DNA of 64,000 nucleotides, taken from Hymenobacter sp. CRA2 (GTDB lineage: Bacteria; Bacteroidota; Bacteroidia; Cytophagales; Hymenobacteraceae). The notes beneath the pieces were generated by a model. That model ran no database searches. It saw only the letters and a program-made list of their open reading frames with translations, and was not told the DNA's origin. This document shows positions 25,636 through 61,449 of the stretch, piece after piece; positions within the stretch are counted from its first letter, which is position 1; the number at the start of each line of letters is the position of its first letter. Where the stretch lies: assembly GCF_002007105.1 (NCBI RefSeq), contig NZ_MVBC01000001.1, positions 124,001-188,000 of the forward strand, read 5' to 3'. A program made the translations under genes and the position numbers.

Positions 25636-25970
25636 AGCGGTAGTGGGTTTGTGTGGTCTGGTTTAAAGCTTTCTGGTACTAAGACCCACAACCCCGCACC
25701 TACCCCTACGCCCCCGCTGAAAAAATTCAAACTTTTTTGCGCGCCCTAACCTTGGCCCCAATTTCTCATTCCTGTAGTTGCTGATACTTTTGAGCGCTGA
25801 GCTTAGCTAACAGCACGTACTTGCCTTTCTCCTAAGCTCGCCGAGACTATCCACGCCTGTGTACCCACTTCGGCACGGGTTTGAAAATGGAAGCTCTGAT
25901 TATACTGAGTTCCGCTTGTACCAAACTTATCTGCTTACACACGCTGCGCCTGCTACCTAACCTTATACCT
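25636..25970. other. Divergent intergenic region between head-GIN and PPTase genes
   Basis: 335 bases separating two divergently read genes, so it must hold both promoters. A homopolymeric AT-rich block at 25730-25750 (runs of A and T) is the most promoter-like part. I see no exact -33/-7 pair, no RNA gene and no strong hairpin. The PPTase reading frame extends back to 25881 but that stretch is treated as leader. Confidence 0.4.
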
Positions 25971-26606
25971 ATGCGAGTGATATACTCCAGCACCCAGGAC
26001 CTGAACGAAGATGCTTTTTATGATTGTCTGCGCCTGTTACCGCCGGGAATGAGGAGCTATATAGAACGTTACAGGAACCCAAATGACCAAAAACAAAGGC
26101 TACTAGCCAGGCTTCTTCTCCGGCAATGCCTGATTCAGACAACGGGCACGGATGAGCTGCTCAACGCCTGGCGAACAGACAATAAGAACAAGCCATACAT
26201 CAGTAACTGGTATCCATTCAATATATCGCATGCCGGTAATTATGTAGTGCTGGGGTACGACGAGGCGGCAATCGGCATCGACATTGAAGAGCATGTGCCT
26301 CTGGACTATACCAGCATGAGTGATTATTTCCATCTGGCTGAAAAGCACTTTATTGAAAACTCAGCCAATCAACAGCTTGATTTTTATACAATCTGGACAA
26401 AAAAAGAGGCTATGCTTAAGGCCCTTGGCACGGGCTTGGTTTCTGGCTTGCAGGAATTCAGCTGCCTATCCGAAAGCATAGACTTCGAGGGTAAAACGTG
26501 GTTTTTCTCCCCTCTCACTATAGACCCGGCCTATACCTGCTATGTGTGCAGCCCTACCCGGGGCCATGCTTTAGCAGTAGAGAAATTCACCTTGCCTGCC
26601 TGCTAG
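25971..26606 (+). CDS. 4'-phosphopantetheinyl transferase, Sfp type
   Basis: Transfers phosphopantetheine from CoA to the conserved serine of carrier domains, activating the megasynthases downstream. The 211-residue product from the ATG at 25971 (MRVIYSS) shows the Sfp-family motifs in order: NKPYISNWYPFNISHAGNYVV (about 74-94), the Mg-binding GIDIEEH (102-108) and WTKKEAMLKALGTGL (142-156). An in-frame ATG at 25881 would add 30 residues with no family match. The gene is visibly more AT-rich than the synthetase genes, which points to a separate origin or different expression. It is on the same strand as the cluster but 1,053 bases upstream of it. Confidence 0.93.
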   Translation: MRVIYSSTQDLNEDAFYDCLRLLPPGMRSYIERYRNPNDQKQRLLARLLLRQCLIQTTGTDELLNAWRTDNKNKPYISNWYPFNISHAGNYVVLGYDEAAIGIDIEEHVPLDYTSMSDYFHLAEKHFIENSANQQLDFYTIWTKKEAMLKALGTGLVSGLQEFSCLSESIDFEGKTWFFSPLTIDPAYTCYVCSPTRGHALAVEKFTLPAC

Positions 26607-27659
26607 CCGAGCATCTCCCCGGCTTTCCGCCAAGACGCACCTAGCGTTGCTGCAGCCTTCGGGTCACAGCTTCGCCTGCGGCCCGCGCCTCTACAGAATT
26701 GGGGTGGCGCACAGCCGGGCCTTGGCAGAATAGCATAGCGCTGTTCCTGGCGTTAGGCAGCAGCAGCACATCATCTTTCAATGCACCCCAATAAAGCGCT
26801 ACAAAAAGGCCTGGGGTAATGCTATGGTGCCGGCTGGAAAGTGAACGTGCTAGCGCCGACGTGCGCATAGCATGGCTGCGTAGCTGACTAGTCCACGTCG
26901 CGTCATAACTATCGTATTGTATATAAGTAAGCAAGCTGCGAAACTGCGCGGCTGGCTACCCTCCCTATTCCGGAAGCGCTGAAACCTTCGGTTGGTACAT
27001 GGCGCGTCAGCTTGCTTGGCGCAGTGCACAACGCGGCGCGACTTGGGCTGAGAGCCGGCTGACTATAGCCTGTCGGGCACATACACTCCCTACCTCTGCT
27101 ACGCCTAGAGGTGCCCCTCTGACTTCGGGCCGTCACTGCCAACCTCTCAATGTTCCTTGTAGCATGCTCCCAGAGTTCTTCGGGAGAGACGAAGGGGATG
27201 TTGCAGCTATAGATGGTGCCAGCCTATTGGCAACTGGCTGACCGAATATGCAATTGCTACGATGTCACAAATGATGGCTTTTTTTCAAGCCCGCAATTGA
27301 TGTAACCGAATACTGTCGAGCCTGAACACGGCTTTTATTAAATATTAACAAGTACAAATTTGACTATAACAATAAATAATCAATATACGCCTCACGTCAA
27401 AAAAGCGGCATTCTTCCTTGAGCCACCGAAAAGGGGGGCAATACATTTAGCTACGCTTAAGACCATGCAAAAGAAGATGTCACACCTAAGCAGATAAGTT
27501 GTGCAATTACTTCTTCTCCGCTAGTCCTGTCACGCGGTCAATTACCTCTCAGATTCACTCGACTATACGCAGGTCGAAGACGGCCGGTTTTTAGGAAAAG
27601 TCCGCATCAGCAGCTCCCGTGTAGCCCCTTCTCTCCAAAACAGCTTCAACGTAGACAGT
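26607..27659. other. Long non-coding stretch upstream of the synthetase operon
   Basis: About 1 kb between the PPTase and the first synthetase. Short frames exist (97 and 77 residues minus, 80 residues plus) but none has a signal peptide, domain or protein-like composition. The right half (27240-27430) becomes AT-rich with runs such as TTTTTTT, and TTTG occurs at 27359-27362, but no matching -7 box at the right spacing is visible. It presumably carries the promoter and a long leader for the 34-kb operon; it may also hold gene remnants too decayed to recognise. Confidence 0.5.
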
Positions 27660-30600
27660 ATGAATCCTTTAGAGATTTTAATCGAGTTAAAAAAACTGGG
27701 CATCACCCCTGGAACTGACGGTAGCCAGCTAAAACTAACCGGGGATGTTCAGAAGCTGCCAAGCGCCTTGCTGGAACAAGTCAAAGCCAGCAAACAGGAA
27801 TTGCTGGCCTTCCTGCGGGCATCGGCAGGCCAAGCCGCCGCTGCGCCTATTAGCCCGGTTGCCCTTCAGGACCATTACCCCACGTCGAATGCGCAGAACC
27901 GGCTTTGGGTGCTTAGCCAGTTCGAAGGTGGCGCAACCGCTTATAATATCGTCACCGGCTTATACCTGAAGGGGCAGGTGGACCGGAAACGGTTGGAGCG
28001 GGCGTTTCAACTGGCCATTCAGCGCCACGAAAGCCTGCGCACGGTATTCCAGGAGGTGGAAGGTGAGCCGCGGCAGATCATTCGCCCCCACATGCCCTTT
28101 ACCATAGGCTACGGCGAGGCCCCGGCCGGTACCGAGCAGCAGGCAGTGTTGCAGGCCGAACTGGAGCAGGCCACTTCCTGGGCATTTGATCTGGAAAACG
28201 GGCCGCTGCTGAAGGTAAAGCTGCTCCGCATGGCGGACGAGGCGCACGCCATGCTCTTTGGCATGCACCACATCATCAGCGACGGATGGTCGGTGGGCGT
28301 GCTGATTCAGGAGGTAATGCACTCGTATGTGGCGCTGGGCCAAGGGCAGGAACCTCTGCTGAGCCCCCTAAGCATACAGTACAAGGATTACGTGCACTGG
28401 CTGGACGAACGCATGGCCGGTGCGCGGGGCGAGCAAGCCCGCACCTTCTGGCTAGCGGAGCAGCCCCAGGCCGTTGAGCCGCTTGAACTGCCTGCCGACT
28501 TTGCCCGGCCGCCGGTACGCTCCTTTGAGGGCGCCATGGCCAAGTACTATTTCTCGGGCGAGTTGCACGACGCAATCGAGAAGCTTTGCAAGCAGCAGCA
28601 AGTAACGCTGTTCAGTTTCCTGCGCGCAACGCTCACGCTCCTGCTGCACAAGCTGAGCGGCCAGGAAGCCGTTGTACTGGGCACGCCGGTATCAGGCAGA
28701 AATCATATTGAGCTGGAAAACCAGGTAGGGCTGTATACCAATACCGTGGCGCTGAAAAGCCACGTGAATGCCCAAGAGCGGTTCGTGGATTTCCTCAAGC
28801 AGACCTCCGACCATTCGCTGCGCGCATTCGAGTTTCAGGACTACCCGCTGGACAAAGTCATTGAGGATTTGGGCGTCAAGCGCGACCCCAGCCGTAACCC
28901 CTTGTTTGACGTCATGCTTGTGTTGCAAAACACAAGCATGGGCGACGGGGCAATGGATACCCAGGCCCAAGGGGGCTTTGCCCTTAGCTTTCTGGATCGT
29001 TACCTGCGCGAGGCAGGCAACGAACAGGCAGCCGGGCGGGCGGCCAAGTTCGACCTGACCTTCAACTTTAGCCAAGATCCTGACGGCGCATTCTTCGCTG
29101 AAATTGAATACGCTACCCGGCTGTTCAGCCGCGAGCGGGTGGGCAAGTTCTGGCGCGTATACCAGTTCCTGCTCACGCAGATTCTGGCCAACCCCGCTCA
29201 GACTATTGCGGGATTGGAAATCGTGGATGCCGAGGAGCGGCGGCAGCTACTGGAAGAATTCAACGTGCCCGTTGAAACCGTGGATACGCTTAGCATCAAC
29301 GAGTTGCTTCGGGAGCCGTTTCACCGCTACGCGCAGCGCCCTGCCCTCCTGCACGGAGAGCAGGTGCTTACCTACGCCGAGGTGGAGGCCCAAGTGGACG
29401 CGGCAGCCCGGTACCTCGCGCAGCTGACGGCCACTAGCCCGGCGCCTTTCGTGGGGCTGTTGCTGGGCCGCTCGGAGTGGACGGTTATGAGCGTGCTGGC
29501 CATCCTGAAAGCCGGGGCCGCCTACGTGCCCATCGACATTCGTTACCCAAGTGCCCGCATCGAGTACATTCTGGCGGATGCCCGCCCGGCCTGGCTGCTG
29601 GTAGACGACGAGGGGCAGGCGCTGGTGCCGGCCGATTATGCGGGCACCGTGCTACACCTCAACGAGCTCAAGGCCCGGGCCGCCACGGCCAACCTGGCAC
29701 CGCTCCCCACGGCGGATTTGCGCGAGCAAACGGCTTACCTGATCTACACCTCCGGCTCGACCGGTCAGCCGAAGGCCGTCAACATCTGCCACCGCAATAC
29801 CATTGCCTTCCTGGACTGGTGCCGCGAAGAGTTTGCCGCCACGCCCTTCGACGTACTCTACGCCGCTACCTCCTACTGCTTCGACCTGTCGGTATTTGAG
29901 TTCCTTTACCCGCTCATGGCGGGCAAGGCCATTCGCGTGCTGGCGTCGGCCTTGGAAATACCCACGTACGCGGGCCAGGACCGCAATGTCCTGCTGAACA
30001 CGGTACCGGCCGTAGTGAAGGGCTTGCTGGAGGAACGCTTCTCCTGGGCCAATGTCACTGCCCTGAACATGGCCGGCGAGCAGGTGCCTTACCTGCTAAA
30101 ACAGGAGCTGGACTTTGCCCGCATCGAAATCCGGAACCTGTATGGGCCTTCGGAAGACACCACTTACAGCACGGTCTACCGCTTCGCGGCCGATGGCCAC
30201 GCAGGTGTACCCATCGGCAAGCCGGTGGGCTACACCCAGCTGTATATCCTGGACAAGCAGCAGCGGCTGGTGCCGGTGGGCGTGGAAGGTGAAATCTACC
30301 TGAGCGGGCAGTCGGTGGCCAAAGGTTACGTCAACAAGCCCGAGCTGACCCAGGAACGGTTCCTGCCCAACCCCTTCGTGGAAGGGCTGACGATGTACAA
30401 AACCGGGGACGCCGGCAAGTGGCTGCCCGACGGAAACGTGGCGTTCTGCGGGCGCCTGGACGACCAGGTGAAGGTACGCGGCTACCGCATCGAGCCGGGC
30501 GAAATCCAGTACCTGCTGGAGCAGCACCCGGAAGTAGAGCGCGCCGTGGTCAACGTGCCCTCCGTAGCGGGCGAACCGTGCGTGGTGGTCTACTGGAAGG

Positions 30601-33600
30601 GCACCGATGCCGTAAGCGCCGCCGAGCTAAAGGCGACCCTGGCGGCCCAGCTGCCCTCGTACATGGTGCCGGATTACTTCGTGCGCCTGGCCGAAATTCC
30701 GCTGAACAGCAACGGCAAAGTAGACAAGCGCCAGCTGCCGCTGCCCGAAGTGCAGGCAACCGGCACGCAGGATGCCGTGCCGCCGACCGACTTCTGGCAA
30801 ACCAAGCTGTGGGCCCTGTGGCAGGAAGTGCTGCGTACCGAGTCCTTCGGCGTCACCGACAACTTCTTCGAGCTGGGCGGACATAGCCTGAAGGCCGCCC
30901 GCCTGCGCTACCTGGTGCTCAGCCAGCTGCAGCGCAACCTGAGCCTGAACGAGCTGTTTCAGTACCCGACCATTGCGCAGCAAGCTACCCTGCTGGAAGC
31001 CCGCGGCGTAGCGACGGCCGCCGTTATTCAGCCCGCGGCTGAGCGCCCCTTCTACCCGATTTCCTACGCCCAGGAGCGGCTGTGGGTGCTCACCAAGTTT
31101 GCGGAGGCGTCCACGGCCTACCACATGCCCGCGGCTTTCCGCGTAAAGCAGGCCCTGAACGTGTCGCTGCTGGAAGCCGCCTTCCGCCACGTAATAGCGC
31201 GGCACGAAGTGCTACGGACTGTGTTCACGGAAGCTGCCGGTCAACCGGTGCAACGCGTGCTGGAACCGGCGGACCTGGAATTCAGCATCGACGAAATCAC
31301 GCTGGACCAAACGCTGACGCCGGAAGAGGAAACGGCCTTCCTGCAACAGGAGTGGAACAAGCCCTTTGACCTGGAAACCGGGCCGCTGCTGCGCTGCTTC
31401 CTGCTGCACATGCCCGGCGGCAGCCTGCTGTCCGTGTGCATGCACCACATCATCAGCGACGGGTGGTCGGTAGGCGTATTGCACGCCGACGTGATGCGGG
31501 CCTACCAGGACTTGCTGCACGGGCAGTCGGGGCAGCTGCCGACGCTGGGGCTGCAGTTTAAGGACTACGCCACCTGGCAGCGCGAACAGCAGAGGGAAGA
31601 CGCCCTGCAGCCCTCGCGGGAGTTCTGGGCGACCATGTTCGCGGGTGACATTCCGGTGCTGGAACTGCCCACCGATTTTCACCGGCCCGAAGTCAAAACC
31701 TACCGCGGCACTACGCACCTGCACCAGTTCGATCAGGCCGCTACGGCCCGGCTTACCCAGCTGGCCACCAGCTCGGGCGTGAGCCTGTTCATGGCCTTGA
31801 TGGCGGGGGTGAAGGTGCTGCTGAAGAAGTATTCCAACCAGCAGGACATTGTGGTGGGCACGCCCGTGGCTGGGCGCAACCACCAGCAGTTGCAGGATCA
31901 GATCGGGTTCTACGTGAACACGCTGGCGGTACGCACCCAGATTGACTCGCTCGCGTCGTTCCAGGCCTTGCTGTGGCAGGAGCGCGACACGCTGCTGCAA
32001 GCCTTCGAGCACCAGGCGTTTCCGTTCGAAACGCTGGTTGAGAGCCTCGGCCTCAAGCGGGATTTGGCCCGCTCGCCCCTTTTCGACGTGATGGTGGTAC
32101 TGCAGAACCTGGAGGGCGGCCTGTCGGAAACCGAATCGGGCCTGCCCCTGCAACATCTGAAGCTGCCCAGCGGCACGGCCAAGTACGACCTGACTTTCAC
32201 CTTCGCCGAAAACCAGCACGGGCTGCTCCTGGAGTTGGAGTACAACACGGACCTGTTTGCGGCTGATACCGCCGCGCGGCTGGGCCAGCACCTGGCCAAG
32301 GTGTTCGAGCAGGTAACGCAGAATCCGGAGCTGCCCGTCAAGAACATTACCCTGCTCGACGAGGCTGCTTACGAAGTGCTGCTCTCCAAAGCCGACCAGA
32401 CCGCTGCCGCTTACGACGAAACGGCCACGCTGGTCAGCCTTTTCCAACAAGCCGCCGTGCGCTTCCCGGACCGCATAGCCCTGGTGGTGGGCGCCCGGCA
32501 GCTCACGTACCGCGAGCTGGACCTGCGTAGCGGCCAGCTGGCCCGCGTGCTCATCCAGGAGCACCACGTGCAGCCGGAAGACCTGGTAGCGCTGCACTTC
32601 GGCCGCAGCGAATGGATGCTGGTAGCCATTCTGGCCGTGCTCAAGGCTGGAGCGGCCTACGTCCCCATCGACCCCACTTACCCCACCGCCCGCATCAACT
32701 ACCTGCTGGAAGACAGCGGCACCCGGCTCCTGCTGTACGACGCGGCGCCCTCCGCTGCTACCCGCGAGCAGTGGGCCAGCGTAGCCTTCTTAAATGTGGC
32801 TGAAGTGGCCTACACCGGGCCGGGCGCACAGGTCAGCGTGGAGCCCGAGCACCTGGCCTACGTCATCTACACCTCCGGCACCACCGGCAACCCCAAGGGC
32901 GTGCTCATCGAGCACCGCAACGTCACGCGCCTGCTGTTCCACGAGGGCAACCATTTCGCCTTCCGCGAAACCGATAACTGGTCGTTGTTCCACTCCTACT
33001 GCTTCGATTTTTCGGTGTGGGAGATGTACGGCGCCCTGCTCTACGGGGGTACGCTGGTGATGGTCCCGAAGGAGGTGGCCCAGGACAGCGTGGCGTTCTA
33101 CGACTTCCTGCTGGAAGAGCAGATAACTGTGCTCAACCAGACGCCCACCGCCTTCCGCAGCTTGGTGCAAAGCAACCAGGAGCGGTTTGCCGACGCACCG
33201 CTGGCCGTTCGCTACCTCGTCTTTGGCGGGGAAGCACTGATGCCCGAAGTGCTGCGCACCTGGGCCGCCGCCATGCCACAGTGCCGCAACATCAACATGT
33301 ACGGCATCACCGAAACCACCGTCCACGTCACCTTTAAGGAACTGACCGCGGCGGAGATTGAGGCCAACAAGAGCAACATCGGCCTGCCCATTCCCACGCT
33401 GAGCTGCTACGTACTCGACGCCGACCTGCAACAGGTTCCCGTCGGCGTCATCGGGGAGCTGTGCGTGGGCGGCGCCGGCGTAGCCCGCGGCTACCTCAAC
33501 AAGCCCGCCCTGACGGCGGAGCGGTTTGTGGCCGACCCGGTGCGCAAACCCGGCCGGCTGTACCGCTCCGGCGACTACGCCCGCATTCTGGCCAACGGCG

Positions 33601-34229: not shown

Positions 34230-34230
34230 G

Positions 34231-47998: not shown

Positions 47999-48061
47999 TG
48001 CCGGCCGACGGCCCCGGCTCCGCCGCCGGTGGCCCGTCGTCTTCAAGAGTTAACCAGTACC

Positions 48062-51000: not shown

Positions 51001-54000
51001 GCTGCAGAACACCAGCCGCCGCGACGACGGGCCGCAGCACATGGAGCAGGTCAGCATCCTGCCCTACGAGAGCAGCGAGCGGTTGATTTGCCGCTCCGAC
51101 CTGCTGTTCGTCGTCACCGAAGATGGCGACGCCCTTCATGTGGTGCTGGAATACAACCGCGACCTGTTTGAGCAGGCTACCGCCGAGCGGCTGCTCACGC
51201 ACCTGGAGCAGCTCATCCAGGGGCTCACAGCCAATCCGGCAGCACCGATTCGGGACATCAACTACCTCAATGCACAGGAGCAGGCCCAGTTGGTGACGGG
51301 CTTCAACGGCGTGGCCGTACCCTACCCGCAGCAGACCATTGTGGCGCTGTTCGAGCAGCAGGTACGCACGTACCCCGAGCAGCCGGCCGTCGTTTTTGAG
51401 GGCACTACGCTGACCTACCGCGAGCTGGACGAGCAAGCCAACCGCCTGGCCCATCACCTGCAGGGGGCTTATGGCGTGGGTCCCGATGAGCTGGTTGGCA
51501 TCATGCTGGACCGCTCCGAGAAGATGATCATCAGCATCTTGGCGGTGCTCAAGGCCGGGGCCGCCTACGTGCCGATCGACCCGGAGTATCCAGCGGCCCG
51601 CAAGGATTACATTCTGCAGGACACCGGCCTGAAGCTGCTGCTCACCCAGCTCGACTACCTGTTTGACCTGACGCAGTTCACGGGCGAGCTGTTTGCGGTG
51701 GACGTGCAGCTGGACGGGCTCGACACGCCCATCACGGCGCCCAACGCCGGTATCCGCCCCGAGCACCTGGCCTACGTCATCTACACCTCGGGCTCGACGG
51801 GCATGCCCAAGGGCGTAATGATTGAGCACGCGGGCATTGCCAACACTATTCAGGCCCAGTGCGCCGCCTTCGACATTCGGCCCGGTGAGCGGGGGCTGCA
51901 GTTTGCGTCTTCGTCGTTTGACGCCTCCGTATCGGAAATCTTCATCATCCTGGCCGCCGGCGGCACCCTGCACGTCATCGGCGAAGGCACCAAGAAGAAC
52001 CCCGCGCAGCTGGAGCGCTACCTCGCTACCCACCAGATTGACATTGCGACGCTGCCGCCGGCCTACCTGCAGCTGCTGAGCCCCGAGGGCCTGCGCCCTA
52101 TGCGTAAGCTGATTACGGCCGGGGAAGCCGCCATCCGCCACAAGGTCAGCGAGTATGCGCGGCACGGTCAGTATTACAACGCCTACGGCCCCACCGAGGT
52201 GAGCATCTGCGGCACCATTTACCCGGCGGCCATGGGCCAGCCCATCGAAGCGCCGAGCGTGCCCATTGGCGCACCCATTGCCAACGCGACCATCTACATC
52301 GTTGACGACGCGCTGGCCCTCACGCCGGTCGGGGTGGTTGGTCAGATTACCATCGGCGGCGCGGGCTTGGCCCGGGGCTACTGGCACAACCCGGAGCTGA
52401 CGGCGGAGAAGTTTGTGCCAAACCCCTTCGTGCCAGGCCAGCGCATGTACCTCACCGGCGACCTGGGCCGCTGGCTGCCCGACGGCAACGTAGAGTTCGT
52501 AGGCCGCAAGGACAACCAGGTAAAAATCAACGGCTACCGCATCGAGCTAGGCGAGATAGAGCAAGTCCTGCTGCGCCAGCCCACCGTGAAGGAAGCGGCG
52601 GCGCTGGTGCGGGAAGACCGGGACGGCAACCGCAGCCTTGTGGCGTACTACGTGCCTACCCATCCGGACGCGCCGCAGCTGGAAAGCCTGCGCGCAGCCC
52701 TCACCGAGCAGCTCCCGGGCTATATGGTGCCTGGCTACTTCGTACCAGTGGATCAGATTCCGGTAACGGCCAGCGGCAAAATCGACCGGAAGAAGCTGCC
52801 CGAGCCCGCCGGCCTGGCCCAGGCCGACGAAGCCACGCACGTGGCCCCGCGCACCGAGCTGGAGCACCAGCTCACGGCCATCTGGGAGAAGTACCTGGGC
52901 CGCACCGACGTGGGCGTCACCGACGACTTCTTCGCTTTGGGCGGCAGCTCGCTCAAGGCCATGCTCATCATCAAGCAGATTACCGACGAGCTGGGCTACA
53001 GCCTGCCCATCAAGGTGCTGTTTGCCGAAAAGAGCGTGGAGGGCGTGGCGCAGTACCTGCTCAGCCAGGAGCCAGCGCCGACAACTTCCTTGGCCCCGCT
53101 GCCCGCCGAGCCGGCGCTGCACATCCCCGTTTCCTACAACCAGCGGAACTACTTCTCCGCCTGGAACATGGGCACCGACGTGGTGGTGGAAAGCTACGAG
53201 TACGAACAGCTGGATCTGCCCGCTTTCCAGTGGGCCGTCACGCAGCTGGTGCACCGGCACGAAATCCTGCGCACGGTATTCGTGGAGGAAGCCGGCACGG
53301 TGCGGCAGCAGGTGCTGCCGCCAGCGGCGGTGCCCAGCGCCGTAGCGGCTCCGGTGATACTGGCCTCGGACGAGCAGCTGCAAGAGCTGCTGACGCAGGA
53401 AAGCCGGCGCACTTTTGACCTGAGCAGGGCTCCGCTGTTCGGGGTGAGCATTTACCAGCTTGCTGGCGCGGCCGGCTTCCGGGTGGTAGCCACGCTGCAC
53501 CACATCCTCACCGATGGGTATTCGGCCGGCGTGCTGCAGGCCGAGCTGCAGCAACTGTACGCGGCGTACCTGCAGCACGGCCCGGATGCCCCGGCCCTGC
53601 CGCCGCTGCCCAACCAGTACCAGGATTTTGCGCGCTGGCAGCACGAGTTTGTGCGCTCGGCCGAAGGGCAGGCACACCGCACCTACTGGCTGAACAAGCT
53701 GCGCGGCATCGAGGCGAGCATTCCGCTGCTTTCGCCGGCTGAACTGGCGGCCCGCCGCAGCACCCCAGCTGTGCTGATGACCACCGCCGTGAGCGGGGAG
53801 CTGTACGCCGAGCTGCAACGCTTCGTGCGGGAGCAGGGCCTTACCCAACCGGCCCTGCTGCTGGCCACGCTGGCGCTGTTTGTGCACCAGCTGCAAGGGC
53901 ATACCGATGTCACGCTGTCGGCCACCGTGTCGAGCCGGAACTCCCGCTTCTACCGCGACCTGGACGTGAGCGGGCTGATCGGCTTCTTTGCCAACGTGCT

Positions 54001-54466
54001 GCTGCTGCGCAACACCGTCCAGCCCGAGGAACCGGTAGCCGATTACCTGCAGCGCGTGCAGGACAGCTTCCTCGAAGACCTCAGCTACGACTCCTACCCC
54101 TTCCTGCGGCTGGTAGACGAGCTGCCCGGCGTAGGCCCCGAGCTGCTGCCGGCCACGGGCTTCCTGAATTACCACAACTACCAGCACGTCAGCACCTCCG
54201 TCTACGAGGCGGCGCTACTGGACGCGCCGAGCACCCTCGAGCTGATAGCGCCCATGCAGCGCGCCTTCGGCCTGACCGTGACGGAATACGCCAACTGCCT
54301 GCAGCTGCAATTCAAGTTCAACCCCGCCGCCTTCCCGGCGGTCAGCAGCCAGGTCACGGTGGACAACTTCCTAGCTCTGCTTCGGCAGGTCATCCATCAT
54401 CCGCTACGTCGCCTCGACGAGCTCCGGCAGCGCGCGGCCGCTTCCGCCGATCTGCTCAACCAGTAA
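48062..54466 (+). CDS. NRPS 3: A-T-C-A(Tyr/Phe)-T-C, terminal condensation domain
   Basis: A 2,134-residue synthetase that begins directly in an A domain. Order: A5 (about 1-525; YTSGSTGAAKAI near 177, NGKVDK near 516); T5 (GGHSLRA, about 573); C6 (about 615-1040; HHIISDGWS); A6 (about 1075-1580); T6 (GGSSLKA, about 1627); terminal C7 (about 1685-2120; HHILTDGYS). No thioesterase or reductase follows. A5 has an unusual core-3 motif and the code DARHLSLLIK, which I cannot assign (its middle resembles the Ser code). A6 code DASTIAAICK suggests Tyr or Phe. I prefer the ATG at 48062 (MDKKVIHRVFEAQ); a GTG at 48029 is the only in-frame alternative. C7 is the likely release or ring-closing domain. 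Confidence 0.93.
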   Translation: MDKKVIHRVFEAQVGTFADAVAIESGSRRITYQELNGQANRLAHLLQTTGCGRETIVPVVAPASIELVGAMLAVFKSGGVYLPVDLAFSERLLTQVFTDTYEGIVVVAAEWEAELRQLTERLGVVIQHLIVLETAQAPRLLSQTAAGLQAVAYAETPAWQDNLTQVVTGTDSNYIFYTSGSTGAAKAIVGAHASLSHFIHWEVREFGLGPDTRVSQLIQVTFDASLRDMFVALLSGGTLCIPPAAVKENPLQLLDWLARTGITLVHCVPSLFRVLTAEWQKNPDAYFDLSQLAHVLMSGEALFARDVVNWRSVAGFGTQLVNLYGATETTLIKTFYRIGEVGPNPAQPIPIGVPISNTSVAVVKDGRMCKPGEVGELYIKTPFATKGYFRNEALTQQCFVQNPLQTQDKDIVYKTGDLGCWLPDGNLELQGRLDGQVKVNGIRVELPDVERALRTVAGVTGAVVKPHHSERGTSLAAYYTGTQQDPAQLREALLQELNAQVIPSWFVWLPAFPLNLNGKVDKHALPQPQQVAGETRFQPPVGEVETTLAACWQDVLGHEAFGRLDSFFGVGGHSLRAIQLVSRISKAFGVQLRVADVFTRPTLAAQAALIGGSLQTTYEQIQPVPASAHYPLSPAQRRLWILSQFEESAVAYHMPSAFVLEGQLQLDALQTALAGLVARHEILRTVFREDERGEVRQFVQPADNEFPLNYIDFRGVAEQLTAVQAAVQAAAMQPFDLAHGPLLRVSLFQTADDRWVFAYVMHHIISDGWSMGILVSELLAAYNALVRQQPYAPAPLRIQYKDYAAWQQAQLSGELLVAHRQFWLTQLGGELPVLELPLDKKRPTQQTFNGASLSRRWDTATGGALRARCQEQDGTLFMGLVAAINALLYRYTGQEDIILGSPTAGREHLDLENQIGFYISTLVLRNRFSGQQSFQELLGQVRQVCLDAFEHQAYPFDTLVDDLRLKQDRSRNALYDVALTLQNTSRRDDGPQHMEQVSILPYESSERLICRSDLLFVVTEDGDALHVVLEYNRDLFEQATAERLLTHLEQLIQGLTANPAAPIRDINYLNAQEQAQLVTGFNGVAVPYPQQTIVALFEQQVRTYPEQPAVVFEGTTLTYRELDEQANRLAHHLQGAYGVGPDELVGIMLDRSEKMIISILAVLKAGAAYVPIDPEYPAARKDYILQDTGLKLLLTQLDYLFDLTQFTGELFAVDVQLDGLDTPITAPNAGIRPEHLAYVIYTSGSTGMPKGVMIEHAGIANTIQAQCAAFDIRPGERGLQFASSSFDASVSEIFIILAAGGTLHVIGEGTKKNPAQLERYLATHQIDIATLPPAYLQLLSPEGLRPMRKLITAGEAAIRHKVSEYARHGQYYNAYGPTEVSICGTIYPAAMGQPIEAPSVPIGAPIANATIYIVDDALALTPVGVVGQITIGGAGLARGYWHNPELTAEKFVPNPFVPGQRMYLTGDLGRWLPDGNVEFVGRKDNQVKINGYRIELGEIEQVLLRQPTVKEAAALVREDRDGNRSLVAYYVPTHPDAPQLESLRAALTEQLPGYMVPGYFVPVDQIPVTASGKIDRKKLPEPAGLAQADEATHVAPRTELEHQLTAIWEKYLGRTDVGVTDDFFALGGSSLKAMLIIKQITDELGYSLPIKVLFAEKSVEGVAQYLLSQEPAPTTSLAPLPAEPALHIPVSYNQRNYFSAWNMGTDVVVESYEYEQLDLPAFQWAVTQLVHRHEILRTVFVEEAGTVRQQVLPPAAVPSAVAAPVILASDEQLQELLTQESRRTFDLSRAPLFGVSIYQLAGAAGFRVVATLHHILTDGYSAGVLQAELQQLYAAYLQHGPDAPALPPLPNQYQDFARWQHEFVRSAEGQAHRTYWLNKLRGIEASIPLLSPAELAARRSTPAVLMTTAVSGELYAELQRFVREQGLTQPALLLATLALFVHQLQGHTDVTLSATVSSRNSRFYRDLDVSGLIGFFANVLLLRNTVQPEEPVADYLQRVQDSFLEDLSYDSYPFLRLVDELPGVGPELLPATGFLNYHNYQHVSTSVYEAALLDAPSTLELIAPMQRAFGLTVTEYANCLQLQFKFNPAAFPAVSSQVTVDNFLALLRQVIHHPLRRLDELRQRAAASADLLNQ

Positions 54467-54509
54467 GCTTTTACCTCTCCCCACCACTACCCGAATTCTT
54501 TCACCAACC

Positions 54510-56147
54510 ATGAAAAACGAACTGTACTACCTCAAGCCTAACGTTATCATCGAGCCGCTGGTGGACCGCTGGTATGCCTGGACGCACCTCATCTCGCCCG
54601 CCACGGGGGCGATGAACCTGCTGGGGCGCCACCTGAAAATCATGAACTCCTACATCCAGGCGCCGCACATTCACGCGGCGGCGGTCAAAAACCCCAAAAT
54701 GCTGGGCGGGCCGTTCATGGACTACGGCGGCAAGCGCGTGGACGAGGTGAAGCAGCTGCGCAGCGAAACCATGGCCCGGCAGGCCAAGGCCATTGAGCTG
54801 GGCGAAGCCATCAGCGAGTTGGACAAGCTGCTCAAGGCGCACCCCAAAGGCTATTCGCTGGAGGGCCTGTACGCGCAGGTGCCCGAGCCGCTGAAAGGCT
54901 ACGTGGAGCTGGTATACGACTTGAACAACAACCTCTCGTTCCGCGTGTTTGAGTCTCTGCTCTACAAGAGCGAGTACTACTCGAAGGCTTCGCAGAGCAT
55001 CGCGCTGTGGGAAACCAACAACGACGAGCGGCCTTTCTGCCTGAGCACCCCGCAGCTGGATGCCCCGCACATCCTGCACCTGGACATGCCCTTCGACCAC
55101 GCCGGCATCGATGCGCTGAGCCGCATGAAGCGCACGCCCCGGCCCATCGACGAGATTGCCGAAATCATGGGCATTGAGGCCGCCGACCGCCCCTTGTTCG
55201 ACACCTTCTTTACCCAGCAGGCCCACCCTACTTACCAGAAGTACACCGGCGACAAAGCCCGCATGCGCTACTTCGGCCACGCCTGTATTCTGATCGAGAC
55301 GAAGGACGTCACCATCCTGGTCGACCCGCTCATCAGCTACTACGGCTACGAGTCCAGCGTCGACCACTTCTCCGACATCGACCTGCCGGACGAAATCGAC
55401 TACGTGCTCATCACGCACAACCACCAGGACCACATCGTGCTGGAGACGCTGCTGCCGCTGCGCCACAAGATCAAGAACATCATCGTGCCCACCACCACCA
55501 GCGGCGCCCTGCAGGACCCCAGCCTTAAGCTGGCCTTCAAGAGCATTGGCTTCGATCAGGTGCGGGAAATCGACGAGATGGAGGAGATTAAATTCGGGGA
55601 CTGCACGATTACGGGGCTGCCCTTCACGGGTGAGCACAGTGACCTGAACATTCACGCCAAGATGTGCTTCCACGTGGCGCTGAACAAGTTCAGCTTCCTG
55701 TTCGTGGCCGACTCGCGGGTGATGGAGCCCAAGCTCTACCAGCACGTGCACCGCGACCTGGGCGACGTGGACGTGCTCTTCGTGGGGATGGAGTGCGAAG
55801 GCGCCCCGCTCTCGTGGCTGTACGGCCCGCTGCTCACCGAGGAACTCGCGCGCGAGCATGACCAGTCGCGCCGCCTCGCCGGCTCCGACTTCGAGAAGGG
55901 CATGCACCTCGTGGACATCTTCCGCCCCAAGGAGGCTTACGTGTACGCCATGGGCCAGGAGCCGTGGCTGGAGTTTATCAGCAGCCTGAAGTACACCGAG
56001 GAGTCCAAGCCCATCGTGCAGTCCAACATGCTGGTGGCGGAGTGCATCAAGCGCGACATCGTGGCCGAGCGCCTGTTCGGCGAGAAGGAGCTGCTCTACG
56101 ACTACGAAACCAAGCTGGCCGAACGCCTGGAGGCCGTCAGCTTATAG
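54510..56147 (+). CDS. CmlA-like di-iron beta-hydroxylase (metallo-beta-lactamase fold)
   Basis: 545 residues: a roughly 245-residue N-terminal domain and a C-terminal metallo-beta-lactamase-type domain. The size and plan match CmlA, the chloramphenicol-pathway mono-oxygenase that beta-hydroxylates an aromatic amino acid held on a carrier domain. Candidate metal ligands are H303, H305, D307 and H308 (THNHQDH), E375 (FTGEHSD), D401 (FVADSRV) and E428 (GMECEGAP). With CmlA numbering as I remember it (H305, H307, D309, H310, E377, D403, E430) every position matches at a constant offset of two, including the Glu replacing the third MBL histidine. It should therefore be an O2-dependent hydroxylase rather than a hydrolase, perhaps acting on one of the Tyr-type residues. 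It follows NRPS 3 by 43 bases. Confidence 0.82.
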   Translation: MKNELYYLKPNVIIEPLVDRWYAWTHLISPATGAMNLLGRHLKIMNSYIQAPHIHAAAVKNPKMLGGPFMDYGGKRVDEVKQLRSETMARQAKAIELGEAISELDKLLKAHPKGYSLEGLYAQVPEPLKGYVELVYDLNNNLSFRVFESLLYKSEYYSKASQSIALWETNNDERPFCLSTPQLDAPHILHLDMPFDHAGIDALSRMKRTPRPIDEIAEIMGIEAADRPLFDTFFTQQAHPTYQKYTGDKARMRYFGHACILIETKDVTILVDPLISYYGYESSVDHFSDIDLPDEIDYVLITHNHQDHIVLETLLPLRHKIKNIIVPTTTSGALQDPSLKLAFKSIGFDQVREIDEMEEIKFGDCTITGLPFTGEHSDLNIHAKMCFHVALNKFSFLFVADSRVMEPKLYQHVHRDLGDVDVLFVGMECEGAPLSWLYGPLLTEELAREHDQSRRLAGSDFEKGMHLVDIFRPKEAYVYAMGQEPWLEFISSLKYTEESKPIVQSNMLVAECIKRDIVAERLFGEKELLYDYETKLAERLEAVSL

Positions 56148-56171
56148 CCAGCTCACAGCCAATGCCATAAC

Positions 56172-56202
56172 CCGCTCCACCGACTCCAAACCGGTGGAGC
56201 GG
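56172..56202 (+). other. Intra-operon stem-loop
   Basis: A perfect 11-bp stem (CCGCTCCACCG with CGGTGGAGCGG, 9-base loop) between the hydroxylase and thioesterase genes. No T tract follows, so it is more likely an mRNA-stability or attenuation element than a full terminator. Confidence 0.5.
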
Positions 56203-56260
56203 CCGCCGGCTCCGGCTGACGGCCGTGTCCATTCCAAGAATTAACGTCCGCTCTGTTTTT

Positions 56261-56983
56261 ATGAAAAAAGTTCAGCTGTTTCTCTTGCATTTCGCCGGCG
56301 GCAACCGCTATTCCTTCCAGTTCCTGGAGCCCTACCTGCCGGAGGTAGAATTTATCCCGCTGGAGCTGCCCGGCCGGGGCCGCCGCCACGCCGAGGCGCT
56401 GCTGCTAGATATAGACGCCGCCGCCGATGACCTCTGCCGCCAGATTATCGCGCTGGGTCCTACCGATTACGTGCTCTACGGGCATAGCATGGGCGCCTTG
56501 CTGGCCCTGAAAGTTGGGGCCCGGCTCGAAGCGGCCGGCTACCCGCCCGCGCACGTGGTGGTAAGCGGCAACGCGGGCCCGGGCAGCAGCCGGGGTCTGA
56601 AGCGCTACCAGCTGCCCCGTACGGCCCTAAAGGCCGAGCTGCAGCAGATGGGTGGGGTGCCGGCCGAGTTTTTGGAGCACGAGGAGCTTTTTGACTTCTA
56701 CGAGCCCATCCTGCGCGCCGACTTCCAGCTGGCGGAGCTAGGCAGCCACGCCTCGTTTGCGCCCCTGCAGGCGCCGCTCTTTGCCCTGATGGGCGACGAG
56801 GAAGCCACCAGCCCGGAGATAGGCAACTGGGCACGCTTCACCGCGGCAGAGCTGAAAGCGGCCCTACTGCCGGGCGGGCACTTCTTTATTCATCAGCACG
56901 CCGAGCGGCTGGCCGACATCATCCGGGGCTGCTACCAGCGCCGCCGCACTGCTGCCGCTCACGCTGCTCACCTCACCTGCTAA
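56261..56983 (+). CDS. Type II thioesterase
   Basis: A 240-residue stand-alone editing thioesterase of the kind that removes mis-primed acyl groups from carrier domains of NRPS/PKS lines. Visible: FLLHFAGGNRYSF oxyanion region, LELPGRGRR, nucleophile S76 in YGHSMGAL, acid D179 in LMGDEEAT and H207 in LPGGHFFI. The ATG at 56261 (MKKVQLFLLH) gives the normal start; the frame is open back to 56225. It is too short and of the wrong type to be the chain-terminating domain, though it could assist release since no in-line thioesterase exists. FAAL starts four bases after its stop. Confidence 0.93.
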   Translation: MKKVQLFLLHFAGGNRYSFQFLEPYLPEVEFIPLELPGRGRRHAEALLLDIDAAADDLCRQIIALGPTDYVLYGHSMGALLALKVGARLEAAGYPPAHVVVSGNAGPGSSRGLKRYQLPRTALKAELQQMGGVPAEFLEHEELFDFYEPILRADFQLAELGSHASFAPLQAPLFALMGDEEATSPEIGNWARFTAAELKAALLPGGHFFIHQHAERLADIIRGCYQRRRTAAAHAAHLTC

Positions 56984-56987
56984 GCCC

Positions 56988-59027: not shown

Positions 59028-59060
59028 AGCCGGCAGACAGCATACGCAAGCAGCGCCTCT

Positions 59061-59765
59061 ATGAAAACGCTAGGTATCATCTCGGGCATGGGCACGCGGG
59101 CGGGCTTGTACTTCGTCGACAAGCTCATTGCGGGCCTGGATGCAAAACGGGACCAGGACTTCCCCGAGTTCTATTTGCACAACAACAGCCGGATTCCGGA
59201 CCGCACCCGTGCCATCGTCGGCAACGAAACGTCGCCGGAAGCGGAGCTGCTCCGCTCGTTCTCGGCCCTGGACCAGTGCAAGGCCGAGGTCATCGTCTCC
59301 ACCTGTGTGACGTCGTACTACTTCATCAACAAAATCAAGACCCGCACCCGCGCCACGGTGCTTAACCCGGTGGAGCTCCTGCGCGACAAAGTACAGCAGG
59401 AGTACGCGCCGGGCCGCAAAATCGGCCTGCTGTGCACCTCCGGTACGCTTCGCTCGCAGCTGTTTCACACGGCTTTTGCCGGCACCGGGCACGAGCTACT
59501 CACCCTCGACGCCGACCAGCAGGAGGACTTGTTCATGCGCTCGGTGTACATGGACAACGGCCTGAAATCGGCCGTCATTTCGCCGGAAGCCTACCGCCTG
59601 CTGAACGCTGCAGTGCAGGAGCTCTGCGGCCGCGGCGCCGATATCATCGTCGGGGGGTGCTCCGAGGTGCAGATCGGCATGCGGCACTGCGTACTGGACG
59701 CGGCCGTGTACCTCGATACCATGGACGTGCTGGCCAGTGCCACCCTGCGCGCCATCCAAGCCTGA
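59061..59765 (+). CDS. Aspartate/glutamate racemase family protein
   Basis: A 234-residue two-domain racemase-family protein. Motifs: GIISGMGTRAGLYFVDKL (start), HNNSRIPDRT, first catalytic cysteine C82 in STCVTSYYF and second C200 in VGGCSEVQIG. Both cysteines needed for cofactor-independent racemisation are present, but the first motif, usually CNTAH, reads CVTSY, so substrate preference may differ from Asp/Glu. In this cluster it could supply a free D-amino acid to an A domain (for example the unassigned A5). None of my specificity codes is a clear Asp/Glu code. It lies 33 bases after the FAAL gene and 28 before the exporter. Confidence 0.85.
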   Translation: MKTLGIISGMGTRAGLYFVDKLIAGLDAKRDQDFPEFYLHNNSRIPDRTRAIVGNETSPEAELLRSFSALDQCKAEVIVSTCVTSYYFINKIKTRTRATVLNPVELLRDKVQQEYAPGRKIGLLCTSGTLRSQLFHTAFAGTGHELLTLDADQQEDLFMRSVYMDNGLKSAVISPEAYRLLNAAVQELCGRGADIIVGGCSEVQIGMRHCVLDAAVYLDTMDVLASATLRAIQA

Positions 59766-59793
59766 TTTTTCTGTATTCCCTCCGTATCCGCGC

Positions 59794-61449
59794 ATGAAGA
59801 ACATCTTTCTGATAGCGGGCAAACCTGCCCGGCTCGTCTATTATATCTTCTTAAGCATCGTCTCGGGCCTGCTCAGCTTTGCCTTCATGGCCTTCGTTAA
59901 CTTCCTGATTAACGAGCTGCTGGCGGGCAAGGCCAAGACGGTGAACCTGCAACACGCCGTTGCCTTCGCCTTCATCGTCTTCTTTTTCGTCTCGTCGCGC
60001 CGGCTGCTGGCGTCCGTCATCATCGACTTTTCCCAGCGGGTGTTCTGGCGCACGCGCCGCGACATCATCGACCTGATGCTGCAAACCAGCTACGAGCGGT
60101 TTGTGCGGTACAAGACGGCCCTGCACGCCTCCCTGGTGCGCGACGTGAACATCCTCACGGCGGCCAGCATGAACATCATCCAGTTCTCGTCGTCGGTCAT
60201 CATCATCCTGGCCTCGTTCGTCTACATGGCCCTGATTTCGCTGCCGCTCTTTGCCTGCTCCTTCGTGGTGCTGGGCCTGGGGGTGCTGGTGTACAGCCAG
60301 AGCATGAAGCGCAACGAGCGGCACCTCACCACGGCCCGAAACCTGGAGGACGTGTTCATCCTGAACTTCAACTCTCTGCTCCACGGCTTCAAGGAAATCC
60401 ATTTGGCACCGGCCAAGGGCGACGACATCGTGCAGTCGGAACTACAGGTGCTCGAAGACAAGTCGGTGGCCAACAACCGCAAAGCCTACGTGGGCTTTCT
60501 GAACAATCAGATTATCGGGCAGGTACTCTTCAACTGCCTCATCGGCGCCCTGCTGCTGGGGCTGACCTACTGGCTCAACCTCAGCGCCTCGGTGGTAGTC
60601 AACTTCCTGTTTATCCTGCTGTTTCTGCTCAGCGCCACCGAAAGCGCCATGGTCATCCTGCCCAGCCTGATTGAGGCCAAGGTGTCGCTGGACCGCGTAG
60701 TGACGCTGAAGAACGAGCTGCAGGGCGAGGGTACGCACAGCCCCCAGGCCCTGCGCCCGCAGCCGCTGACGGATTTCCAGGAGATTGTGCTGTCCGGCGT
60801 TACGCACACCTACCGCACGGAGAAAGATGGGGCGGGCTTTTCCGTCGGCCCCGTGGACCTGGAGCTGCGCAAGGGCGAGGTGGTATTCATTTATGGCGGC
60901 AACGGCAGCGGCAAGACGACTTTCATCACGCTGCTGCTGGGCCTGTTTAAGCCCACCCAGGGCGGCATCTTCTGCGATGGGCACGCCATTCAGGGGACCA
61001 GCTACAGCAGCTACCAAGCGCTGTTTGGGGTCGTATTCAACGACTTCTACCTGTTCAACAAGCTGTTTGGCCTGACGCACGTCGACGAAGACCTCGTCGT
61101 GCGCTACCTCAAGCTATTCGAGCTGGAGCACAAAGTGACTTACCAGGACCGCGCTTTCTCTTCGCGGGACCTCTCGACGGGGCAACGCAAGCGCTTGGCC
61201 CTCATTTCGGTGCTGCTGGAGAAAAAACCGGTATTGGTGCTTGATGAGTGGGCCGCCGACCAGGACCCCTACTTCCGGAAGAAGTTCTACACCGAAATCC
61301 TGCCCCAGCTGCGGGACGAGGGCTTTACCATCCTCGCCATTACGCACGACGACAAGTACTACAACTGCGCCGACCGGGTATTCGAGATGGACTACGGCAA
61401 GCTGAAACAGGTCTGGCTACAAGACCCCGCCCTGGTCTCGCATATCTGA
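59794..61449 (+). CDS. Cyclic peptide export ABC transporter (fused permease-ATPase)
   Basis: 551 residues: six hydrophobic helices in the first about 310 residues, then one nucleotide-binding domain. Walker A is GGNGSGKTTF, the signature is DLSTGQRKRLAL and Walker B runs LVLDEWAADQDPYFRK; the LSTGQ signature and the DEWAADQDP form are typical of the PvdE/SyrD/YojI type of exporters of siderophores and lipopeptides. It should pump the finished product, or an acylated precursor, out of the cytoplasm. The ATG at 59794 (MKNIFLIAGKP) gives the normal family start; an upstream in-frame start at 59737 would overlap the racemase gene. It is the last gene of the operon. Confidence 0.95.
   Translation: MKNIFLIAGKPARLVYYIFLSIVSGLLSFAFMAFVNFLINELLAGKAKTVNLQHAVAFAFIVFFFVSSRRLLASVIIDFSQRVFWRTRRDIIDLMLQTSYERFVRYKTALHASLVRDVNILTAASMNIIQFSSSVIIILASFVYMALISLPLFACSFVVLGLGVLVYSQSMKRNERHLTTARNLEDVFILNFNSLLHGFKEIHLAPAKGDDIVQSELQVLEDKSVANNRKAYVGFLNNQIIGQVLFNCLIGALLLGLTYWLNLSASVVVNFLFILLFLLSATESAMVILPSLIEAKVSLDRVVTLKNELQGEGTHSPQALRPQPLTDFQEIVLSGVTHTYRTEKDGAGFSVGPVDLELRKGEVVFIYGGNGSGKTTFITLLLGLFKPTQGGIFCDGHAIQGTSYSSYQALFGVVFNDFYLFNKLFGLTHVDEDLVVRYLKLFELEHKVTYQDRAFSSRDLSTGQRKRLALISVLLEKKPVLVLDEWAADQDPYFRKKFYTEILPQLRDEGFTILAITHDDKYYNCADRVFEMDYGKLKQVWLQDPALVSHI

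What the first reader, a model, noticed from the sequence alone, without database searches (positions are those of the whole stretch)
25971..61449. Complete hybrid lipopeptide cluster in a Hymenobacter-like genome
The sequence shows PPTase, four megasynthases, a CmlA-like hydroxylase, type II thioesterase, FAAL-ACP, racemase and exporter in one direction with gaps or overlaps of 1 to about 113 bases after the first synthetase. Known family functions give a coherent pathway: FAAL-ACP primes, six amino acids and one malonate are added, one residue is epimerised, and the product is exported. I do not recognise the combined architecture as any characterised compound.
Basis: partly seen in the sequence, partly recalled or inferred. 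Interest (0 to 1): 0.82.

Follow-up and report, generated by a model that had tools for sequence, protein, structure and literature searches.

The report
Lipopeptide gene cluster with D-aspartate cassette
A Hymenobacter-like bacterium carries an intact, apparently undescribed set of genes for a fatty-acid-tailed peptide, and one part of it, a racemase paired with an unusual amino-acid-selecting enzyme, recurs in related bacteria and probably inserts a mirror-image aspartate linked through its side chain.

Summary
The cluster is real and intact: PPTase, four megasynthases (CATCAT, CAT-E-CAT, KS-AT-KR-T-C, AT-CAT-C), CmlA-type hydroxylase, type II TE, FAAL-ACP, racemase and peptide exporter, + strand, 25971-61449. 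There is no cis thioesterase: the line ends in a C domain. And the racemase belongs to a recurrent pair. Racemase and D's first A domain (pocket DARHLSLLI, Arg at "239") occur in the same 3 of 204 family genomes. A wider scan gave 12 genomes with Arg-type domains of this kind, 9 with the racemase in the flank. Arg-type domains start their protein in 19 of 21 cases, others in 3 of 99. The next C domain scores L-type in 20 of 20. One Chitinophaga has a methylaspartate mutase between the two genes. Best reading: D-Asp joined through its side-chain carboxyl (D-isoAsp), as with microcystin McyF/McyB, in another gene arrangement. Against: the racemase's best NCBIfam model is cysteate racemase (below cut-off), and some Arg-type domains lack a racemase. 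Product and linkage are predicted, not shown. New variant of a known kind.

The parts
25971..26606 (+). 4'-phosphopantetheinyl transferase, set 1,053 bp apart from synthetase A
   Evidence: PF01648 and PF22624 over cut-off; G+C 0.48
27660..34229 (+). Synthetase A: (weak TubC_N-like N-terminus)-C-A1-T-C-A2-T; codes DLFNNALTY (Ala, recalled) and DFWNVGMVH (Thr)
   Evidence: TubC_N 20.7 bits, under cut-off 26; 60% identical homologue behind a FAAL-ACP gene in genome G047
34231..42102 (+). Synthetase B: C-A3-T-E-C(DCL)-A4-T; codes DAENVGSID (basic residue, Lys/Orn, recalled) and DASTVAAIC (aromatic, recalled)
   Evidence: E clade and D-type clade in quick tree; D-type score +278 leave-one-out
42089..47998 (+). 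Synthetase C: KS-AT-KR-ACP-C; its last C would serve the Arg-type A domain of the next protein
48062..54466 (+). Synthetase D: A5-T-C-A6-T-C(terminal); A5 code DARHLSLLI (Arg-type), A6 DASTIAAIC (aromatic, recalled)
48062..49651 (+). A5, the N-terminal Arg-type adenylation domain paired with the racemase
53120..54427 (+). Terminal condensation domain (HHILTDG), probable release domain
   Evidence: groups with terminal C domains of four other genomes of the family in a quick tree
54510..56147 (+). CmlA-type non-haem diiron beta-hydroxylase
   Evidence: PF18456 E 1e-94; nearest solved 8a90 (E 1e-141) and CmlA 4jo0 (E 4e-113)
56261..56983 (+). Type II thioesterase
   Evidence: PF00975
56988..59027 (+). 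FAAL-ACP, fatty acid loading
59061..59765 (+). Aspartate/glutamate-family racemase
   Evidence: TIGR00035 122.3 bits over cut-off 93.1; higher-scoring but under its cut-off: cysteate racemase CuyB 149.9 of 190; nearest solved aspartate racemase 1jfl E 3e-33; both Cys motifs in 11 of 11 relatives
59797..61449 (+). Cyclic peptide export ABC transporter
   Evidence: TIGR01194 315.9 bits over cut-off 286.2

Best explanation
An intact FAAL-primed NRPS-PKS line for an exported lipopeptide. Fatty acid is activated by FAAL, loaded on its ACP and joined by the first C of A to Ala, then Thr (A), D-basic residue (B: A3 plus E), aromatic residue (B: A4), one ketoreduced malonate (C; makes a statine-like unit), then an aspartate-type residue by D-A5, then a second aromatic residue (A6); the terminal C releases or cyclises. 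The racemase makes D-Asp. A5 grips the alpha-carboxylate with its pocket Arg and activates the beta-carboxylate, so the chain continues through the side chain (D-isoAsp) and the next C domain need not be D-specific. CmlA hydroxylates a carrier-bound residue, perhaps an aromatic one. Shown: domains, intact motifs, racemase/A5 co-occurrence, gene order, L-type downstream C. Inferred: substrates, linkage, release, target of CmlA, the product.
For: Racemase at E<=1e-30 in 3 of 204 family genomes and A5 at E<=1e-75 in the same 3 of 204. In a phylum sample racemase (E<=1e-35) in 2 of 385 (own, G450), A5 in 4 of 385 (own, G450, G375, G557). Of 12 genomes whose matched domain has Arg at that position, 9 hold the racemase in the flank (8; Hymenobacter sp. 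CA2-7), 8 of these 9 with no gene between it and the A-first gene. Arg-type A domains are protein-initial in 19 of 21, others in 3 of 99. Downstream C domains L-type in 20 of 20; controls: D-type 6 of 6, L-type 38 of 39 called correctly. Methylaspartate mutase E (402.1 bits, cut-off 390.1) between racemase and Arg-type gene in Chitinophaga sp. YR627. Racemase nearest to solved aspartate racemases. A5 has the highest aminoadipate-model to general A-domain score ratio, 0.62 against 0.36-0.48. Literature: DPRHLALLAK listed for alpha-aminoadipate (PMC12283262, section 12 read); McyC's C domain groups with L-donor domains although it takes D-MeAsp through the beta-carboxyl (PMC2174460, passages); an Arg proposed to hold the alpha-carboxylate of Asp so that the beta-carboxylate is adenylated (AfcQ, PMC12186527, section 9 read).
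Against: In the window the racemase is not beside A5 but three genes and 4.6 kb downstream. Its best-scoring NCBIfam model is cysteate racemase CuyB (149.9 bits, under the cut-off of 190), above the aspartate model (122.3). Arg-type domains without a racemase seen: L078, L081, L082 (3.7 kb contig) and G557. The Arg-equals-side-chain-activation rule is recalled; PMC12283262 also lists a similar code (DPRHVSLLAK) for Asn, and in AfcQ the Arg is elsewhere. An L-type downstream C would equally fit an L residue. In one search, 4 of the 6 D-type controls were picked by their own motif, not by an E domain in cis. The racemase/A5 distance correlation is r 0.92 on 11 pairs (0 of 10,000) but 0.54 (399 of 40,320) on 8 and 0.38 (275 of 5,040) on 7 after removing near-duplicates, then YR627. 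Solved McyB and McyF are distant.
Confidence: 0.6

Rival explanations
1. The racemase feeds D-Asp or D-Glu to A5, which activates it in the normal way through the alpha-carboxyl.
For: Racemase/A5 pairing.
Against: A D residue linked through its alpha-carboxyl would normally need a D-type C next; 20 of 20 downstream C domains score as L-type.
Confidence: 0.15
2. A5 takes L-Asp, L-Glu or L-alpha-aminoadipate through the side-chain carboxyl, and the racemase acts elsewhere (on a precursor, in the cell wall, on another residue, or on cysteate).
For: Similar codes listed for aminoadipate and Asn; Arg-type A domains with no racemase seen in the flank in 3 of 12 genomes and in G557; L-type downstream C; cysteate racemase model scores best, below cut-off.
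Against: Pairing of racemase and A5 in 11 clusters including the window; mutase beside the pair in one.
Confidence: 0.2
3. Everything is an ordinary lipopeptide cluster and the racemase pairing is shared descent of a few clusters, without functional meaning.
For: Three near-duplicate pairs among the 11 clusters (racemases 87-98% identical); five of the 11 (L072, L073, L074, L077, G450) share much of their order and codes; distance correlation weakens without near-duplicates.
Against: The window, the Hymenobacter pair, L069, L070 and L071 have other orders and codes around the pair.
Confidence: 0.1
4. The terminal C domain only hydrolyses or is inactive, and the separate type II TE releases the product (independent of the other rivals).
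For: No other TE in the cluster; related terminal C domains of G099 and G115 lack the HH motif.
Against: HHILTDG is intact in the window; a separate TE gene also occurs in G047, whose line ends in its own TE.
Confidence: 0.25

Closest known systems
Microcystin D-MeAsp unit: McyF aspartate racemase with the McyB module (PMC6950048 and PMC2174460, passages)
   Same: Dedicated aspartate racemase; A domain with an Arg-type pocket (McyB code recalled); following C of L-donor type; D-Asp/MeAsp in iso linkage there
   Different: Other phylum; A domain is protein-initial, split from its C; racemase next to it in most relatives; only distant likeness to solved McyF and McyB chains; no dehydrogenase gene like McyI among the cluster's genes; methylaspartate in one relative would come from a mutase
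Uncharacterised clusters of two other genomes of the family, G047 and G076
   Same: CmlA 78%, TE 52%, exporter 44% identical in both; in G047 also a FAAL-ACP directly upstream of a 60% identical synthetase A
   Different: G047: A-T-TE ending, with penicillin amidase, TonB-type receptor and FAD oxidase genes nearby; neither has a racemase (E<=1e-30) or A5 relative (E<=1e-75); both run over contig ends
Chitinopeptins (PMC9248904; passages and section 8 read)
   Same: Bacteroidota cyclic lipopeptides with CmlA-like beta-hydroxylation, assigned there to Asp, Phe and Ile, and an ABC transporter
   Different: 14-15 residues; authors report no racemase in trans
AfcQ/VinN-type beta-Asp activation (PMC12186527; section 9 read)
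   Same: Arg proposed to hold the alpha-carboxylate so that the beta-carboxylate is adenylated; a FAAL in the pathway
   Different: Stand-alone A enzyme, L-Asp, Arg at another position, residue decarboxylated to beta-Ala
Speirobactin cluster (PMC12406682; passages)
   Same: Aspartate racemase gene in an NRPS cluster
   Different: Two-module NRPS with other codes

Membership tests
FAAL-primed NRPS-PKS lipopeptide cluster | FAAL with its own ACP | tested here: met
FAAL-primed NRPS-PKS lipopeptide cluster | First C domain takes a fatty acyl donor | tested here: inconclusive
   First C sits in the L-type part of the quick tree; relative in G047 has FAAL-ACP directly upstream
FAAL-primed NRPS-PKS lipopeptide cluster | Intact modules and export | tested here: met
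McyF/McyB-type D-isoaspartate module | Aspartate racemase encoded in the cluster | tested here: met
   TIGR00035 over cut-off, nearest solved aspartate racemase; but CuyB scores higher, below its cut-off
McyF/McyB-type D-isoaspartate module | Arg in the A-domain pocket (recalled feature) | tested here: met
McyF/McyB-type D-isoaspartate module | Next C domain of L-donor type | tested here: met
McyF/McyB-type D-isoaspartate module | Close sequence relation to McyF/McyB | tested here: not met
   McyF 5wxx only E 3e-4; McyB fragment 8hlk far down the lists (which McyB module it holds was not checked)
McyF/McyB-type D-isoaspartate module | D configuration and beta linkage in the product | not testable with these tools
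   needs assay or structure
CmlA beta-hydroxylase | CmlA_N domain plus metallo-beta-lactamase fold with HxHxDH | tested here: met
CmlA beta-hydroxylase | Hydroxylates a carrier-bound amino acid | not testable with these tools
   needs assay
Chitinopeptin family | Line of 14 or more modules, no racemase in trans (as described in PMC9248904) | tested here: not met
   6 A domains, racemase present

The most novel reading that the evidence does not exclude
Bacteroidota carry a mobile-looking biosynthetic cassette, an aspartate racemase plus an A-first, Arg-pocket A-T-C unit, that inserts beta-linked D-Asp (or D-methyl-Asp) into otherwise different lipopeptides; it arose apart from the cyanobacterial one, and the window's line places it straight after a statine-like unit and ends by terminal-C release.
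Probability: 0.45. Interest if true: 0.65.

Novelty: new variant of a known kind. Interest (0 to 1): 0.52.

Why it matters
General knowledge: side-chain-linked D-Asp resists peptidases and leaves a free alpha-carboxylate, which shapes metal and target binding. If the reading holds, a simple sequence signature (protein-initial A domain, TFDASLRD, DARH code, racemase nearby) would let genome miners predict such residues, and it would separate substrate chemistry from the standard D/L logic of condensation domains. The A domain and racemase are small, separable and testable.

Tried and rejected
Genome scan with synthetase C as query: 5 stretches, none confirmed. CmlA as a marker of the cluster: 3 of 204 family genomes (own, G047, G076) and 5 of 395 phylum genomes, 4 over the cut-off, in other clusters where looked at (G047, G076, G446), so it does not define this one. 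Empty-site test in the genus: upstream neighbour in 8 of 8 genomes (E<=1e-25), downstream M28 gene in 1 of 8 (own; E<=1e-60), so no junction to compare. Aminoadipate model as a test of A5: only weakly supportive, A5 and A6 score alike in bits (213.5, 213.6). Solved-structure search for A5: no informative nearest relative. The careful C-domain tree did not finish; the quick tree is used, with SH-aLRT support only and long branches flagged by the tool. Paper searches for recalled codes found nothing or only the Thr code. RNA families and tRNAs in the window: none. A paper searched inside for these terms without a hit: PMC12677607. Dropped rows: 6 A domains of cut-off genes (5 other, 1 Arg-type) and duplicate loci L075, L076, L079, L080; these loci, L084, and C domains under 380 residues. 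In one search the ORF filter hid the CA2-7 racemase, which searches show.
Full report
Observation. The window is G000:C11:124001-188000 of a 5.88 Mb, 45-contig genome. Domain order by Pfam and by profiles built here: A = C-A-T-C-A-T, B = C-A-T-E-C-A-T, C = KS-AT-KR-T-C, D = A-T-C-A-T-C, then CmlA-type hydroxylase, type II TE, FAAL-ACP, racemase, exporter. Junctions range from a 14 bp overlap to a 113 bp gap; only the PPTase stands apart, 1,053 bp upstream and with lower G+C. Key catalytic motifs are intact on reading the translations. The exporter passes TIGR01194 and the racemase TIGR00035, though cysteate racemase CuyB scores higher on the racemase while staying under its own cut-off. The hydroxylase's nearest solved relatives are a diiron monooxygenase (8a90) and CmlA; the FAAL's are FAALs.

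Assembly order. Pocket residues were read from an alignment of 64 A domains, with positions set by motif anchors recalled from GrsA. Codes: DLFNNALTY, DFWNVGMVH, DAENVGSID, DASTVAAIC, DARHLSLLI, DASTIAAIC. Thr for the second is supported by PMC12283262 (passages: DFWNIGMVHK in its Thr/Dhb section); Ala, basic and aromatic are recalled. B carries an E domain (E clade, support 100) and a D-type C after it. The KR implies a hydroxy, statine-like unit after the aromatic residue. There is no TE in cis: D ends in a C domain with HHILTDG that groups, in a quick tree only, with the terminal C domains of G099/G115 (support 93) and G015/G033 (82). The target of the hydroxylase is a guess; chitinopeptin authors assign CmlA-like hydroxylation to Asp, Phe and Ile (PMC9248904, section 8).

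Front end. Genome G047 holds a protein 60% identical to A over 2,197 aligned positions, with codes DLFNNALTY and DFWNIGMVH and a FAAL-ACP gene directly upstream, and a 78% identical CmlA on another contig. That supports the FAAL to A hand-off in the window, where FAAL is encoded near the end. The G047 cluster has an A-T-TE end and other neighbours, so the window's back end (PKS, racemase, Arg-type module, terminal C) differs from it.

The racemase pair. Racemase relatives at E<=1e-30 occur in 3 of 204 family genomes (own, G099, G115); at E<=1e-35 in 2 of 385 of a phylum sample (own, G450). A5 relatives at E<=1e-75 occur in the same 3 of 204 and in 4 of 385 (own, G450, G375, G557). G375 has Lys in place of the Arg (DAKQVALVL) and no racemase in the stretches read; G557 has the Arg-type code DPRHFAILV behind a C domain, also with no racemase in the stretch read. 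A pattern-based scan of one genome per species for 84,980 species (not exhaustive) gave 17 loci from 15 genomes; in 12 of the 15 the matched domain is Arg-type (11 Bacteroidota, one Acidobacteriaceae MAG). In 9 of these 12 the racemase lies in the flank: Chitinophaga tropicalis, C. rupis, Chitinophaga spp. YR627 and GbtcB8, Flavitalea sp. BT771, Chryseobacterium rhizoplanae, Spirosoma utsteinense, Hymenobacter spp. HSC-4F20 and CA2-7 (CA2-7). It was not seen in L078 (Flavobacteriaceae MAG), L081 (Chryseolinea, flank cut short) and L082 (a 3.7 kb contig). In 8 of 9 no gene lies between racemase and the A-first gene. In the window the racemase lies downstream, between FAAL and exporter.

Gene boundary. 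Of 126 A domains in the examined loci, 6 in cut-off genes were dropped; Arg-type domains begin their protein in 19 of 21, others in 3 of 99. Those 3 are the Lys-type domain of G375 and two domains of G557 with no usual pocket code; the 2 Arg-type exceptions are G557 and L082. Fisher p is 5e-17, but rows are not independent and the Arg-type rows were partly found by similarity to A-first ones. The upstream C is then the last domain of the preceding protein, as in the window.

Why side-chain linkage. If a D residue were joined through its alpha-carboxyl, the next C should be D-type. Profiles were trained on 6 D-type C domains (2 directly after an E domain in cis, 4 N-terminal ones picked by their motif) and 39 C domains after ordinary carriers; leave-one-out calls were right in 6 of 6 and 38 of 39. 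All 20 C domains after Arg-type modules score L-type, the window's by 388 bits; several of the 20 are near-duplicates. The same oddity is on record for microcystin: McyC's C domain groups with L-donor domains though its donor is D-MeAsp through the beta-carboxyl (PMC2174460, passages), with McyF as aspartate racemase and iso linkage (PMC6950048, passages). An Arg holding the alpha-carboxylate of Asp so that the beta-carboxylate is adenylated is proposed for AfcQ (PMC12186527, section 9). DPRHLALLAK, 7 of 10 like A5's code if the last Lys is assumed, is listed for alpha-aminoadipate, but the equally similar DPRHVSLLAK for Asn (PMC12283262, section 12).

Why aspartate. The racemase's nearest solved relatives are aspartate racemases. 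In Chitinophaga sp. YR627 it overlaps a gene whose E part is methylaspartate mutase E (over cut-off) with an S-like N-terminus (90.2 bits, under the cut-off of 110), followed by the Arg-type gene. In that locus and in G099 an asparagine-synthase-like gene lies directly upstream of the racemase, which could amidate a free alpha-carboxylate; that is a guess. The window's cluster has no such gene.

Limits. Racemase and A5 distances correlate (r 0.92, 0 of 10,000) mainly through near-duplicate pairs; with 8 clusters r 0.54 (399 of 40,320), with 7 r 0.38 (275 of 5,040). No substrate, linkage, release mode or product was shown. MIBiG was not available. That this pairing is not in print rests in an open-access library only, mostly seen as listings.

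Verdict. An intact, apparently undescribed lipopeptide cluster, ordinary in kind, holding a recurrent racemase/A-domain cassette that makes a sharp, cheap prediction: beta-linked D-Asp.

Noticed in passing
G000:C24 (locus L007, 1-14487): A second NRPS fragment in the same genome: a contig made of NRPS genes and a TauD-type dioxygenase, with codes DLTKIGEVG (twice) and DAFWVGGTF; both ends run off the contig.
   Followed up: partly
L071:3740-9328: Chitinophaga sp. YR627: TauD, asparagine-synthase-like, racemase and methylaspartate mutase genes in a row before an Arg-type A-first NRPS.
   Followed up: partly
L038:13647-15530 (G099): Asparagine-synthase-like gene directly upstream of the racemase in a second cluster; may amidate the free alpha-carboxylate.
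   Followed up: no
L078:6090-16004 and L081:1-13435: Three single-module A-T-C genes each with Arg-type codes (DVRHFALLA three times; DARHLCLLA in a cut gene, DVRHLSLLA, DLRHLALLA) and no racemase seen: possible repeated side-chain-linked residues.
   Followed up: no
L004:17333-19765 (G047) and L006:4676-7141 (G076): A gene of similar size near the CmlA relative in both; in G047 it is a penicillin amidase, perhaps removing a fatty acyl group after synthesis as in pyoverdine maturation (recalled) (the G076 copy was not scanned).
   Followed up: no
G099 and G115 terminal C domains (L038, L041): Terminal C domains after an E domain lack the HH motif yet group with the window's intact terminal C in the quick tree.
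   Followed up: no
window 25636-27659: PPTase and its surroundings have lower G+C (0.48-0.52) than the synthetases (0.62-0.66), suggesting separate origin.
   Followed up: partly
window 61624-63999: M28 peptidase gene just after the exporter; no relative at E<=1e-60 in the 7 other genomes of the genus.
   Followed up: partly
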